A DNA stretch of 64,000 bases from Candidatus Altimarinota bacterium (GTDB taxonomy: Bacteria > Patescibacteriota > Gracilibacteria > BD1-5 > UBA6164): contig JAOARJ010000002.1 in the NCBI GenBank assembly GCA_025210615.1, positions 186,001 to 250,000 of the forward strand, read 5' to 3'. Shown in pieces: positions 11,969 to 30,000 of this stretch. Position numbers and translations under genes: made by a program. The notes under the pieces are model-generated. The model was given only the letters and a program-made list of their open reading frames with translations. It made no database searches and had not been told where the DNA came from. The number at the start of each line of letters is the position of its first letter. Within the stretch, counting starts at the first letter, position 1.

Positions 11969-13726
11969 ATGAAAAAATTATTAACAAGATTGCAAAAATA
12001 CATGGGTAAAAGAAAAATGCTTTTACCAGGCTCTCTTTTAAGTTCAGCAATAAGTGCTGTATTATGAATCATGCCATATATTTTTATATGGTTAATTGTA
12101 AAACAATTATTAATTTCTGATTTACAATCAACTAAAGAAATAATTGCTTGATATGCTTTATGGGCTTTAATTACATCAATATTAAGTGTTGTATTTTATT
12201 TTTTAGCTCTCACATTATCTCACTTAGCTGCTTTCCGCGTAGAAACAAATATACGTAAAGAAACTATGAAAAAAGTTATAAAACTACCTCTTGGATTTTT
12301 TGAAAATAATACAAGTGGGAAATTAAGGAAAATTATTGATGATAATGCTGGTATTACTCATTCTTTTCTAGCTCATCAACTTCCTGATTTAGCTGGAACT
12401 TTTATTGTGCCTATCACTACTTTATTATTAATATTCATCTTTGACTGGAAATTAGGTATTGTTTGTCTTATTCCTCTTATTATAACTGTTTTTATTATGA
12501 GGAATATGATGCTTAAAAAAGGAAAATTTTTTACTCAAAAATATATGACATCTCTAGAAAATATGAATACTGAAGCTGTTGAATATGTACGTGGAATACC
12601 TGTTGTAAAAATTTTTCAACAAACTATTTATTCTTTTAAAAGTTTTTATAAAAGTATTATAGATTATAGAGATATGGTCTATAATTACACCCTTTTATGG
12701 AAAAAACCTATGTCAACTTATAATACTATAATAAATTCATTTGCATATTTTCTTATTATAGCAGCTATTTTTTTTATAAATAACTCTTGAAATTATATTA
12801 ATATAATAGTAAATTTAATATTTTTTATCCTTATTACTCCTGTTTTTGCTCAATCAATTATGAGAAGTATGCACTTGAATAATAGTGTTATTCAAGCAAG
12901 TGAAGCACTTAATAGAGTTGAAAAACTTACAAAAACAAAAATCTTACCAGTATCACAAAATCCAGAAGAAATTAAAAATAGTAAAATAGAATTTAAAAAT
13001 GTTTCTTTTAGTTATCCATGAGCAAATAAAAAAGCTATTGATAATATTAATTTTACTATAAAAGAATGACAAACTTTTGCTATAGTTTGACCTTCTTGAA
13101 GTGGTAAAACAACAACAGCAAGACTTATCCCTCGTTTTTGGGATACTAATGAATGAGAAATAAAAATTGGTAATACAAATGTAAAAGATATTTCTTCAAA
13201 AGAATTAATGAATAATATTTCCTTTGTTTTTCAAAATACAAAACTTTTTAAAACAAGTTTACTTGAAAATATTTGTTATTGAAATCCAAATGCATCAGAA
13301 AAAGAAATTAAAAATGCTCTACAATTAGCACAATGTAAAGATATTATTGAAAAAATGCCAGATTGATTAAACACAAAAATATGAACGAAATGAACATATT
13401 TATCATGATGAGAAATGCAACGTATTTCTATCGCTAGGGCTATTTTAAAAAATTCTCCTATTGTTGTTTTGGATGAAGCAACTGCTTTCACTGATCCAGA
13501 AAACGAACATCTAATACAAAAAGCTTTTGATAAACTTACTAAAAATAAAACAGTCTTAATGATTGCCCATAGACTTACAAGTATAGTTAACGCTGACTGT
13601 ATTTTAGTTATGAGTGAGTGACAAATCACAGAAAGATGAACACATAAAGAATTAATTGAGAAAAACTGATTATACGCAAAAATGTGGAAAGAATATAAAA
13701 AATCTGCTGATTGGACAATTAATTAA
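11969..13726 (+). CDS. ABC transporter, fused membrane/ATPase half (IrtA/YbtP-like)
   Basis: 585 residues: six transmembrane helices (about 15-300) then an ATPase. Motifs: Walker A 'GPSGSGKTTT' (about 373), signature 'LSGGEMQR' (about 478), Walker B 'IVVLDEAT' (about 498), H-loop 'IAHRL'. The membrane part has 'LPLGFFENNTSGKLRKIIDDNAGITHSFLAHQLPDLAGT', the pattern of exporter-fold transporters such as YbtP and IrtA that import iron-siderophores. The metal-type repressor upstream supports iron or metallophore transport. It forms a heterodimer with the next gene (58-base gap). Confidence 0.85.
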
Positions 13727-13784: not shown

Positions 13785-15521
13785 ATGATTAATTTTTTAA
13801 AAAAAAGATTTGCTCTATCAAAAAAAGGAGCTTATGATTTTATTAAAGGTGTAATATTTACAACCTTACTTAACATTGCCTTAATGTTCCCTGCTATATT
13901 TACTTTTCTGTTTTTAGATGATTATCTAAGACCTATTATAGAACAAACAAATAGTGAAGTAAATAGTTTTATGTATTATTTTATTTTAAGTTGCGTACTA
14001 ATGATAATAACATGGTTAATCGCCATATTTCAATATAGTAGTACTCATGCAAGCGTATATAGCGAAAGTGCTAATCGTCGTGTATCAATTGCTGAAAAAT
14101 TAAGAAAGCTACCATTATCATTCTTTGGTGAAAAAAACTTATCAGATTTAACAGGGACAATTATGGCTGATAATGCGGAATTAGAAAAAATTTTTTCACA
14201 TACTGTACCACAATTATTTGCCGCTATTATTTTTTTATGCTTAGCTACAACAGGATTGTTTATAACTAACTGGAAATTGGCTTTAGCTTTACTTTGGGTT
14301 GTACCTATTGCAACCCTAGTTGTTATCCTATCAAAAAAACTTCAAATAGAAAAAAATAAAATAATTTATAATGATAAAAGAGAGGTTTCAAGCTATATTC
14401 AAGAGGGATTAGAAAATATAGCCGAAATAAAATCATATAATAATGAAGAAAAATATACAAATAATCTAGAAGAAAAACTTGATAAGTATGAGAAAAATTT
14501 AACTAAATGAGAACTTACGATTGGAGTTTTACTTAATAGTTCTCAAAGTATTTTAAAATTATGATTAGTTAGTGTAATTTTTGTCTGAGTATATTTATTA
14601 TCAAAAAATGAAGTAAGTTTATTTACTTATTTAATATTTTTAATATTAGCAACTCGCATTTATAGTCCTATTAGTGATGTTTTAAATAATTTAGCTGCTT
14701 TATTTCATTTAGATATTCCAATAAAAAGAATGAATGAAATAAAAAATTTAAAAACTCAAAGTGGTTCTAAAGATTTTAAACCAAAAAACTATGATATAGT
14801 TTTTAAAAACGTTAATTTTTCTTATGAAACATGAAAACAAGTTATAAAAAATGTTTCTTTTATTGCAAAACAATGAGAAATAACAGCATTAATAGGTTCT
14901 TCTGGTTGAGGTAAAAGTACAGCTACAAAATTAGCTGCTCGTTTCTGGGATATTGATTCTGGTAAAATTACATTATGATGACAAGATATAAGTAAGATAG
15001 ATCCTGAAACTTTATTAAAAAATTATTCTTTTGTCTTTCAAGATGTAACTCTTTTTAATACTTCTATTAAAGATAACATTCGTATATGAAAACACAATGC
15101 AACAGATGAAGAGATAATTAAAGCCGCAAAAATGGCTCAATGTGATGATTTTATAAGAAAAACGCCTAATGGTTATGATACAATAATCGCTGAAAATTGA
15201 GATACTCTTTCTGGTTGAGAAAAACAACGTATTTCTATTGCAAGAGCTTTACTTAAAGATGCTCCTATTATACTTTTAGATGAATCAACAGCATCACTAG
15301 ATGTAGAAAATGAAACAAAAATACAACAAAGTATTTCCGAGCTTATTAAAAATAAAACAGTTTTAATTATCGCCCATAGAATGAGAACAATAGCACATGC
15401 CGATAAAATAGTAGTTCTTGAAAACTGAAAAGTTATAGAAACAGGTAATCCTAATGATTTAAGTAAAAATAAAAACAGTGCATTTACTAAAATGTGTAAA
15501 ATACAAATAAAAGATGTTTAG
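13785..15521 (+). CDS. ABC transporter, fused membrane/ATPase half (IrtB/YbtQ-like)
   Basis: 578 residues with six helices (about 15-300) and an ATPase: Walker A 'GSSGGGKST' (about 371), signature 'LSGGEKQR' (about 474), Walker B 'IILLDEST' (about 496), 'IAHRM'. The motif '[38 protein letters not shown]' mirrors that of its partner and marks the IrtAB/YbtPQ-type group. It completes a heterodimer with the upstream half. UGA supplies most glycines in the ATPase but far fewer in the membrane part. Confidence 0.85.
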
Positions 15522-19855: not shown

Positions 19856-20521
19856 ATGTTAGAATTAAAAAATATTAAAAAATCTTACACAATGTGAGAA
19901 CAAACTTTAGATGTTTTAAAGTGAGTCGATTTAAAAGTTTCAGAAGGTGATTTTCTAGCGATTATGTGACCTAGTTGAAGCTGAAAGTCTACATTAATGA
20001 ATATTATTTGAATGCTTGATGATAGTGATTCTTGAGAATATTATATTAATAATGAAAGAGTTGATAACGTGAGTGAAGCTAGAAAATGACAAATCAGAAG
20101 AGAAAATATTTGATTTATTTTTCAAAATTATTCTTTAATTCCTAGAATAAATGTTTTAGAGCAAGTAAAACTTCCGCTTATTTATCAAGGAATATCAAAC
20201 AAAAAAGCGACAGATTTAGCTATGAAAGCATTAGAAAAAGTTTGATTAAAATGAAAAGAAAAAAATATGCCGAATGAAATTTCTTGAGGGCAAAAGCAAA
20301 GAGTATCAGTTGCTAGAGCTTTGGTAATCTCCCCTACTATGATGCTAGCTGATGAGCCAACTTGAGCGTTAGACACTAAAACTTCTGAAGAAATTATGGA
20401 TTTATTTGAGCAATTAAATAAAGAATGAAAAACAATTATTGTCATCACTCATGAGCCAGAAGTAGCAGAAAGAACAAAAAAAACAATTATCGTTCGTGAT
20501 TGAAATATTATTAACTCTTAA
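19856..20521 (+). CDS. ABC exporter ATPase (MacB/LolD type)
   Basis: 221 residues. Walker A 'MGPSGSGKSTLMNIIG' (about 38-48), Q-loop 'IFQNYSLIPRINVLEQV', signature 'EISGGQKQRVSVARAL' (about 142), Walker B 'MMLADEPTGALD' (about 162), 'VITHEPEVAERT'. This is the canonical MacB/LolD ATPase pattern. By hand count about 16 of 19 glycines are UGA, including two in Walker A, a good benchmark for native codon use. Its stop and the permease ATG are 3 bases apart. Confidence 0.92.
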
Positions 20522-28125: not shown

Positions 28126-29478
28126 TTAAGATTTAGAAATTTCAGGAGTTTTCACAAAAATTTTTTTATAATAAAAAGCTAATATACTGATGGATATCAA
28201 AAATTCTGAAATTGGCAATATAGTCCATATATATTCGTTCGGTAGTACCAAAGGAACAAATAATGCAATAGGAATTAATATAATAATTGACCTTAGTGTG
28301 TTAACTATCATCGCGTCTTTTATTTTTTCTACAGATTGAAAATATGAAGCTAAAAGTGAATTAAATCCAATAAAAACAAATCCAACCATATATATTAATA
28401 ATGCCTTTCTTGTCATACTAAACAAAGGAGAACTAATATCTTCTGTCGTAAATAATCCTATAACTTGATCTGAAAAAAAGAAAAGCCCCATACATAGTAC
28501 TATTGCGATAATTAAACTATTTTTTATCCCTAAAGTTAAAGTATTTTTTATTCTTAATTCTTCACTTTGACCATGATTAAAACTAATTATTGGCTGTATT
28601 CATTGAGCAATACCATTTAATGCCATACCAATAAACATCGAAATACTGGCCACAATTGCATAAGCGCTAATCCCCAATGTTCCATAAGCTTGACTAGCTG
28701 TAATATTCATTAAAAACATAGAAATAGGCAGAAATATATTTCAAATCATTATAGGAATTGTATTTATAAAAATTTTCTTATATTCTTTAAATTCAAAATT
28801 AGGTTTAGATATTCTAAGATTTCCCTTCTTTAAAATAAAATGAAATGATAGAATAATTACTGCTATAACTTGAGATAAACCTGTAGCAATAGCCGCTCCT
28901 GTAAGACCCCAATCAAATCCAAAGATAAATAACGCATCTAAAGGAATATTAATTAAACTACTTACTATTATTGCTACCATCGCAAGATTTGGATTACCAT
29001 CATTTCTAATAATGCTTGATAATGTAGCTTGCATCGTGAAGAAAAAAAGGAAATATAAGATAATTGATAAATACCTTATAACCATATCAAAAGTTTCAGG
29101 AGTTGCTCAAAGCAAGGTAGCAATTTGACTAGAAAAAACTAATCCTAAACCAGTAAATACAAGCGAAATAACAGCGTTAATTAATAATATATTTGTAAAA
29201 GTATTATTTGCTTTTACATATTTCTTTTTACTTAAATATATTGAAATAATAATTGAAGCTCCGATTGCCAAAGACATAGTTATTGAATTCACTATAACCA
29301 TAATAGGGATAGTCAAATTTACTGCACCAAGAGCCTCACTACCAACTCCCCTTCCAATAAAAATCGCATCAACTATAAAATAAACTGACATAATAACCAT
29401 CATCGTCATTGATGGAATCGCGTATTTCCAAAATAAAGACTTTATATCTTTTTCTAATAATTCTTTTGTTTTTTTCAT
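28126..29478 (-). CDS. MATE-family multidrug efflux transporter
   Basis: 450 residues with twelve predicted helices. N-terminus 'LEKDIKSLFWKYAIPSMTMMVIMSVYFIVDAIFIGRGVGSEALGAVNLTIPI' is the classic MATE start, and the central 'SSIIRNDGNPNLAMVAIIVSSLINIPLDALFIFGFDWGLTGAAIATGLSQ' is diagnostic. By hand count only about 3 of 26 glycines are UGA, the reverse of neighbouring genes. That points to recent transfer from a standard-code donor. It is 11 bases downstream of a MarR gene that itself contains no UGA. Confidence 0.92.
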
Positions 29479-29489
29479 TTTTATATAAC

Positions 29490-29909
29490 TTAAATTGTAA
29501 TTTTGTTAATATATTTTGAGATAATTTTTACTGCTTTAGTAAATTCCTCTTTTTCTTCAGGAGAAAACGAAGACATTATTGAAGCAAAATACTTATCCCA
29601 ATCCTCTTTTATTGCTTTTATGGCCTTATTTCCCTTTTCTGTAATTAATAAATGTAATACTCTTTGGTCTGTTTCTGAAGGTTTTTTTATAATATACTTT
29701 ATCTCAATAAGATGCCTAATTGAACGCGTAAAAGAGCTTTTTTCTAGTGCAACTTCTTTACTAATTTCTGACATCGTCTTATTATCTAAGGAATCCATAA
29801 TCATAAGAATTTTGGCTTGTGTTTTGTTAATATTAAGATTTAGATGCGAAATATTATGTTCATAAAATAATTTCTTTACAAATTTAGGAAAATCTTTTAA
29901 TTCTTTCAT
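29490..29909 (-). CDS. MarR-family regulator of the MATE exporter
   Basis: 139 residues, readable in either code because it contains no UGA. Winged helix 'TQAKILMIMDSLDNKTMSEISKEVALEKSSFTRSIRHLIEIKYIIKKPSETDQRVLHLLITEKGNKAI' is typical MarR. It is co-transcribed with the MATE gene and preceded by a perfect palindrome over its promoter. Confidence 0.9.
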   Translation of the reverse strand: MKELKDFPKFVKKLFYEHNISHLNLNINKTQAKILMIMDSLDNKTMSEISKEVALEKSSFTRSIRHLIEIKYIIKKPSETDQRVLHLLITEKGNKAIKAIKEDWDKYFASIMSSFSPEEKEEFTKAVKIISKYINKITI

Positions 29910-29923
29910 TTTCTATAAAATTA

Positions 29924-29937
29924 GTTGTATTTACAAC
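29924..29937. promoter_or_regulatory. MarR operator palindrome
   Basis: GTTGTA-TT-TACAAC, perfect 14-base palindrome, 15 bases before the MarR ATG. On the minus strand a TTGACA (29973-29968) with TATTAT 16 bases downstream precedes it, so bound MarR would block initiation. Confidence 0.65.
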
Positions 29938-30000
29938 AAATATAATATAAAAATAAAATAATATGTCAAAATATTTTTGTACTTTTTTTCTATTAAATCA

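What the first reader, a model, noticed from the sequence alone, without database searches (positions are those of the whole stretch)
28126..29909. MarR-MATE pair almost free of UGA glycine codons: recent transfer across genetic codes
By hand count about 3 of 26 glycines in the MATE gene are UGA and none in the MarR, against about 16 of 19 in the MacB-type ATPase. A gene from a standard-code donor enters UGA-free and gains UGA by mutation, so the UGA fraction acts as a clock of residence. It also shows that standard-code donors can supply genes that work at once, whereas the reverse is impossible.
Basis: partly seen in the sequence, partly recalled or inferred. Interest (0 to 1): 0.6.

Follow-up and report, generated by a model that had tools for sequence, protein, structure and literature searches.

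The report
Foreign drug-efflux operon crossing genetic codes
A drug-efflux pump gene, probably together with its repressor, entered a bacterium that reads UGA as glycine from a bacterium using the normal code, and it still shows almost no UGA glycines; but UGA scarcity alone cannot date such transfers, because the cell's own most-used genes avoid UGA as well.

Summary
It is empty for the MarR gene, which has one glycine. The transfer interpretation is largely supported: the MATE falls with a Bacillota-rich FepA-type clade, AU tests reject grouping it with MATEs of code-25 relatives, and no orthologue of either gene was found in 77 genomes of the order. The 'clock' claim needs correction: the UGA-poorest genes are mostly native, highly expressed translation genes (ribosomal operon 24% UGA). 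Only after correcting for codon optimality and GC does the MATE stand out (expected 72%, observed 12%, z = -4.5, joint lowest of 552 genes), which separates foreign origin from high expression. Two of its three UGAs sit at conserved glycines, so it has been kept under code 25. A strong promoter and a 14-bp palindrome precede the MarR, as in Bacillota MarR-MATE loci and S. aureus mepR. The nearest relative is about 37% identical, so the donor is unsampled. 'The reverse is impossible' is too strong. This is an ordinary transferred efflux operon, useful as a test case for a corrected UGA clock.

The parts
28126..29478 (-). MATE-family efflux transporter (450 aa), UGA-poor, stop TAA
   Evidence: PF01554 E 1e-47; TIGR00797 160.6 bits over its 147.4 cut-off; full-length match to solved MATE BH2163, E 1e-51; 3/26 Gly = TGA
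29107..29109 (-). in-frame UGA, Gly124
   Evidence: Gly in 28 of 31 clade relatives; position
28741..28743 (-). in-frame UGA, Gly246
   Evidence: poorly conserved site; position
28600..28602 (-). in-frame UGA, Gly293
   Evidence: Gly in 21 and Ala in 10 of 31 clade relatives; position
29490..29909 (-). MarR-family regulator (139 aa), upstream gene of the pair, stop TAA, 11 nt before the MATE start
   Evidence: PF01047 32.8 bits over cut-off 24.6; no relative at E<=1e-4 in the other 76 genomes of the order, 14 of 320 Bacillota at E<=1e-10
29924..29937 (-). perfect 14-bp palindrome GTTGT-AAAT-ACAAC, probable MarR operator
   Evidence: only match in the window, 0 expected in shuffles; 2 in 827 kb, the other one inside a gene; same layout as GTTAG-N4-CTAAC before two Bacillota MarR-MATE pairs
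29942..29969 (-). promoter-like TTGACA-16-TATTAT upstream of the MarR
   Evidence: 11 of 12 consensus matches

Best explanation
A MarR-MATE efflux operon was acquired by horizontal transfer from a standard-code bacterium carrying a FepA-type MATE (most probably Bacillota) by an ancestor of this code-25 (UGA = Gly) bacterium, recently enough that only 3 of 26 glycine codons have turned into UGA. Working model: the MarR binds the palindrome just downstream of the -10 box of its own promoter and represses both genes; a toxic cation or drug releases it; the MATE then exports the compound by ion-coupled antiport. Shown here: foreign phylogenetic position, absence from the order, UGA deficit beyond expression and GC, UGA at conserved glycines, and the layout of operon, promoter and palindrome. 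Inferred: joint transfer of the MarR, repression, substrate, coupling ion, donor phylum and order of events.
For: UGA 3/26 against 72% expected from its codon optimality and GC, z = -4.49, joint lowest of 552 genes; its non-glycine codon usage is unlike ribosomal genes (24th percentile), so high expression does not explain the deficit. Tree: inside a 33-row FepA-type clade at 100/100, Bacillota-dominated, nearest row 37% identical; AU rejects union with code-25 order MATEs (p 1.6e-24), standard-code class MATEs (2e-73) and f159 code-25 MATEs (5e-69). No orthologue of the MATE among MatE hits in 77 order genomes, none for the MarR. Independent FepA-clade MATEs present in several genomes of another code-25 family are UGA-rich (L101 31/38, L106 25/37), as expected of older arrivals. 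Two of three UGAs are at conserved Gly sites. The gene is embedded in a 410-kb contig between UGA-rich genes.
Against: Long terminal branch (1.3-1.55) and 37% best identity: the donor is not identified and the sister group is unresolved. GC (27%) and most codon usage look native, which fits a low-GC donor but gives no independent support. No mobile element or clear flanking repeat was found. No genome of the same genus is held, so phyletic age is bounded only between genus and family. The MarR is linked by layout only; its relatives are 24-34% identical.
Confidence: 0.83

Rival explanations
1. Native or long-resident gene kept UGA-poor by translational selection because it is highly expressed.
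For: UGA avoidance is real in native highly expressed genes: ribosomal operon set 24% (131/549) against 68% genome-wide, EF-G 9/55, EF-Ts 0/14, also EF-G 8/60 and EF-Tu 2/35 in two other code-25 genomes.
Against: The MATE lacks the other marks of that class: AGG 3/7 against 0.00, GGA over GGT, few C-ending codons at Asn, Tyr and Phe; codon-optimality score -0.150 against +0.04 to +0.17 for ribosomal-type genes; residual z -4.49. Its tree position is foreign.
Confidence: 0.05
2. The MATE was transferred, but the MarR is a separate gene of other origin that happened to lie upstream.
For: The MarR has one Gly, so no UGA signal; its similarity to any relative is at most 34%.
Against: No relative in 76 other genomes of the order; 11-nt spacing, same strand, operator-like palindrome before the MarR; the same arrangement occurs in Bacillota (L211, L223).
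Confidence: 0.2
3. Assembly chimera or contamination by a standard-code organism.
For: Zero-UGA genes on the 3-kb contig C1 look like contamination, so the assembly may not be pure.
Against: The MATE holds 3 in-frame UGA, two at conserved Gly, lies inside a 410-kb contig between UGA-rich genes, and its composition is native-like.
Confidence: 0.03
4. The direct donor was a standard-code Patescibacterium that had itself taken the operon from Bacillota.
For: Standard-code Patescibacteria carry diverse MATEs, some near Bacillota rows (L054, L055, L023); unsampled intermediates are likely.
Against: None of the sampled ones falls in the FepA-type clade; union with L097-L100 is rejected, p 2e-73.
Confidence: 0.15

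Closest known systems
Listeria FepA (FepR-FepA)
   Same: MATE of the same 33-row clade; regulator gene directly upstream of the pump
   Different: Far below the FepA equivalog cut-off (219.9 against 900 bits). FepR is of another regulator family (TetR type, own knowledge); here it is a MarR.
Staphylococcus aureus mepR-mepA
   Same: MarR gene followed by a MATE gene; operator immediately downstream of the mepR -10 box (PMC3617543), as is the palindrome here
   Different: MATE 114.3 against an 850-bit MepA cut-off; palindrome arms GTTGT rather than GTTAG; no mepB counterpart was looked for
BH2163, a MATE of solved structure (5c6o; DinF-BH, named from own knowledge)
   Same: Aligned over residues 10-446; the Asp in the first helix (Asp37 here) aligns with the Asp that is Asn in the 5c6n chain
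   Different: Distant relative (bit score 179); substrate and coupling ion untested
Code-11-compatible phages of Gracilibacteria (PMC10746230)
   Same: Standard-code-compatible DNA working in a UGA = Gly host
   Different: Those are phages; this is a chromosomal operon that has begun to gain UGA

Membership tests
MATE transporter family | two MatE domains over a ~450-aa protein, above curated cut-off | tested here: met
   PF01554 162.2 bits, 2 stretches; TIGR00797 160.6 over 147.4
MATE transporter family | conserved Asp in the first helix of DinF-type MATEs | tested here: met
   Asp37 aligned with the Asp of BH2163
MATE transporter family | ion-coupled drug export | not testable with these tools
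   needs transport assays
FepA equivalog | NCBIfam NF000217 cut-off 900 bits | tested here: not met
   219.9 bits
MepA equivalog | NCBIfam NF000131 cut-off 850 bits | tested here: not met
   114.3 bits
MarR family | winged-helix MarR domain above gathering score | tested here: met
   PF01047 32.8 over 24.6 bits
MarR family | binds a palindromic operator in its own promoter | tested here: inconclusive
   palindrome and promoter present at the right place; binding not tested
recent horizontal transfer | tree position apart from vertical relatives | tested here: met
recent horizontal transfer | absence from close relatives | tested here: met
   77 genomes of the order; no congener held
recent horizontal transfer | UGA deficit not explained by expression or GC | tested here: met
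   z -4.49
recent horizontal transfer | named donor or empty site | not tested
   nearest relative about 37%; no genome search left for synteny

The most novel reading that the evidence does not exclude
In code-25 bacteria UGA-Gly is under translational selection (avoided in highly expressed genes), and once this is corrected for, the residual UGA deficit is a directional marker of inbound transfer from standard-code donors that still works when composition and codon usage give no signal. This MATE is its clearest chromosomal case in the fetched two thirds of the genome.
Probability: 0.55. Interest if true: 0.6.

Novelty: new member of a known kind. Interest (0 to 1): 0.42.

Why it matters
Gene transfer across genetic codes is often treated as blocked. 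This case shows the inbound direction open for a drug-efflux operon, and shows that the obvious UGA clock is confounded by gene expression but can be repaired. Transfers into code-25 CPR bacteria could then be listed and ranked in age from sequence alone, even when donor and recipient are both AT-rich.

Tried and rejected
UGA fraction as a plain clock: rejected, since ribosomal genes are as poor in UGA. Island hypothesis for 24.0-27.7 kb (SnoaL/hydrolase, SDR, second MarR at 43-62% UGA): not supported, because expected values after correction are 47-61%. Mobile element or flanking direct repeats around the pair: nothing beyond weak AT-rich matches. MATEs of the order as ancestors: rejected. 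'Nested inside Bacillota': softened to 'inside or sister to the FepA-type clade', since AU p = 0.26. Plasmid carriage of close relatives: none above 35% identity among the listed best hits. UGA-decoding tRNA-Gly: not found by ARAGORN in the fetched two thirds of the genome, so not informative. Two Bacillota searches covered the same phylum, which wasted one.

Full report
CHECK OF THE OBSERVATION. Read with code 25, the MATE ORF 28126-29478(-) has 26 glycines, of which 3 are UGA; other window ORFs average 72% UGA (binomial P = 2e-10) and none with ten or more glycines is lower. The MarR ORF 29490-29909(-) has a single glycine (GGA), so 'none' carries no information. The MacB-type ATPase (19856-20521) has 15 of 18.

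I took 827 kb of the 1.25-Mb genome and called 763 ORFs. The UGA share of glycine is 68%. The genes lowest in UGA are mostly native and highly expressed: ribosomal proteins L10 and L7/L12 (0/12, 0/14), EF-Ts (0/14), S2 (1/18), EF-G (9/55), L2 (5/32) and others (named from sequence, own knowledge). The ribosomal operon set has 131/549 = 24%. In two other code-25 genomes, sampled only in part, EF-G (8/60), EF-Tu (2/35) and uL11 (1/14, 1/15) show the same. The simplest reading is that UGA is a poor glycine codon under translational selection. A low UGA share can therefore mean 'foreign' or 'highly expressed', and it is not a clock by itself.

SEPARATING THE TWO. I scored each gene for likeness to ribosomal codon usage without using glycine codons. 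UGA share falls with this score (Spearman -0.29, P = 3e-11). The MATE is UGA-poor yet lies at the 24th percentile of ribosomal likeness. In a binomial regression of UGA share on this score and GC, with overdispersion 2.3, the MATE is expected to have 72% UGA and has 12%: z = -4.49, equal to the lowest of 552 genes. The only tie is on a 3-kb contig that may be a contaminant. Neighbouring genes with 43-50% UGA (24.6-27.2 kb, 33.5 kb) have expected values of 47-50% and are unremarkable.

PHYLOGENY. The order of this genome (77 genomes held) has other MATEs, nearly all UGA-rich, that score at most 104 bits against this one. The class holds better matches in standard-code members (205 bits) and in a second code-25 family, f159. 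Bacillota hold the best (280 bits, 38% identity); Bacteroidota do worse. In a tree of 87 rows the window MATE lies in a 33-row clade at 100/100 that includes Listeria FepA and is mainly Bacillota, with some Fusobacteriota and others. AU tests reject its union with the order's MATEs (p 1.6e-24), with standard-code class MATEs (2e-73) and with the f159 code-25 MATEs (5e-69). In a reduced tree its place inside the clade is unresolved, and a position outside all the others of the clade is not rejected (p = 0.26). The source is a FepA-type lineage, probably Bacillota, but no donor can be named.

AGE. Under a simple first-order approach to the genomic UGA share, 3/26 corresponds to about 0.16-0.2 relaxation times (95% interval about 0.03-0.6). 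The protein branch of 1.3-1.55 changes per site is too long for so little synonymous change, so most divergence from sampled relatives must predate entry (inference): an unsampled donor rather than a long residence. f159 genomes carry FepA-clade MATEs of separate origin with 25-31 UGA of 37-38 glycines, in several genomes: older arrivals look as the idea predicts. Two of the three UGA codons stand at glycines conserved in 28/31 and 21/31 relatives, so the gene has been kept under code 25 and would now be cut short at codon 124 under the standard code.

ANATOMY AND MECHANISM. The MATE is full length and matches solved BH2163 over residues 10-446 with the first-helix Asp kept. The MarR ends 11 nt upstream. 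Before it stands TTGACA-16-TATTAT and, just after the -10 box, the perfect palindrome GTTGT-AAAT-ACAAC, unique in the window and found once more in 827 kb, inside a gene. Among 15 Bacillota MarR relatives, the two that sit next to a MATE have GTTAG-N4-CTAAC at the same place; the other 13 have no palindrome of that form. S. aureus MepR uses GTTAG and a site directly downstream of the mepR -10 box (PMC3617543). I therefore infer an autorepressed, substrate-inducible MarR-MATE operon. Repression, substrate and coupling ion are not shown.

WHAT IS KNOWN. UGA = glycine in Gracilibacteria and its proteomic proof are known (PMC4032931), as are phages compatible with both codes in these hosts (PMC10746230). 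In the passages of these papers that I searched I found no expression-dependent UGA avoidance and no UGA-based dating of transfers; the original SR1 paper was not held, so novelty of that point is tentative.

VERDICT. A new example of a known kind, horizontal transfer of an efflux operon, made notable by the code boundary and by the correction to the UGA clock.

Noticed in passing
genome-wide; L197 (ribosomal operon) against window background: Highly expressed translation genes avoid UGA-Gly (24% against 68%); same trend for EF-G, EF-Tu and uL11 in two other code-25 genomes.
   Followed up: partly
L186:4578-5327 (-), L186:11662-12294 (+), L186:17108-17425 (-): Single genes without any UGA glycine (0/18, CTP_transf_1; 0/21; 0/10) and with high GC3 among UGA-rich neighbours: further candidates for recent transfer.
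   Followed up: partly
L185 (contig C1, 3,075 bases): Two ORFs (one a glycosyltransferase) with 0/13 and 0/11 UGA: contaminant or foreign element.
   Followed up: partly
L230:7107-10895 and 12065-13219 (G443): Long ORFs of another code-25 genome with 0/112 and 0/37 UGA glycines: a code-11-compatible region, perhaps an element or phage.
   Followed up: no
L101, L104, L106: A second code-25 family (f159) holds UGA-rich MATEs that fall in Bacillota-type clades: apparent older, independent transfers.
   Followed up: partly
L158 and L156: A 'Stenotrophomonas' plasmid record carries a MATE nearly identical to one of Lysinibacillus: probably a mislabelled or contaminated record.
   Followed up: no
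window 13785-15521: ABC transporter half with 12/27 UGA against 74% expected (z -2.3) beside a normal partner: possible weaker case.
   Followed up: no
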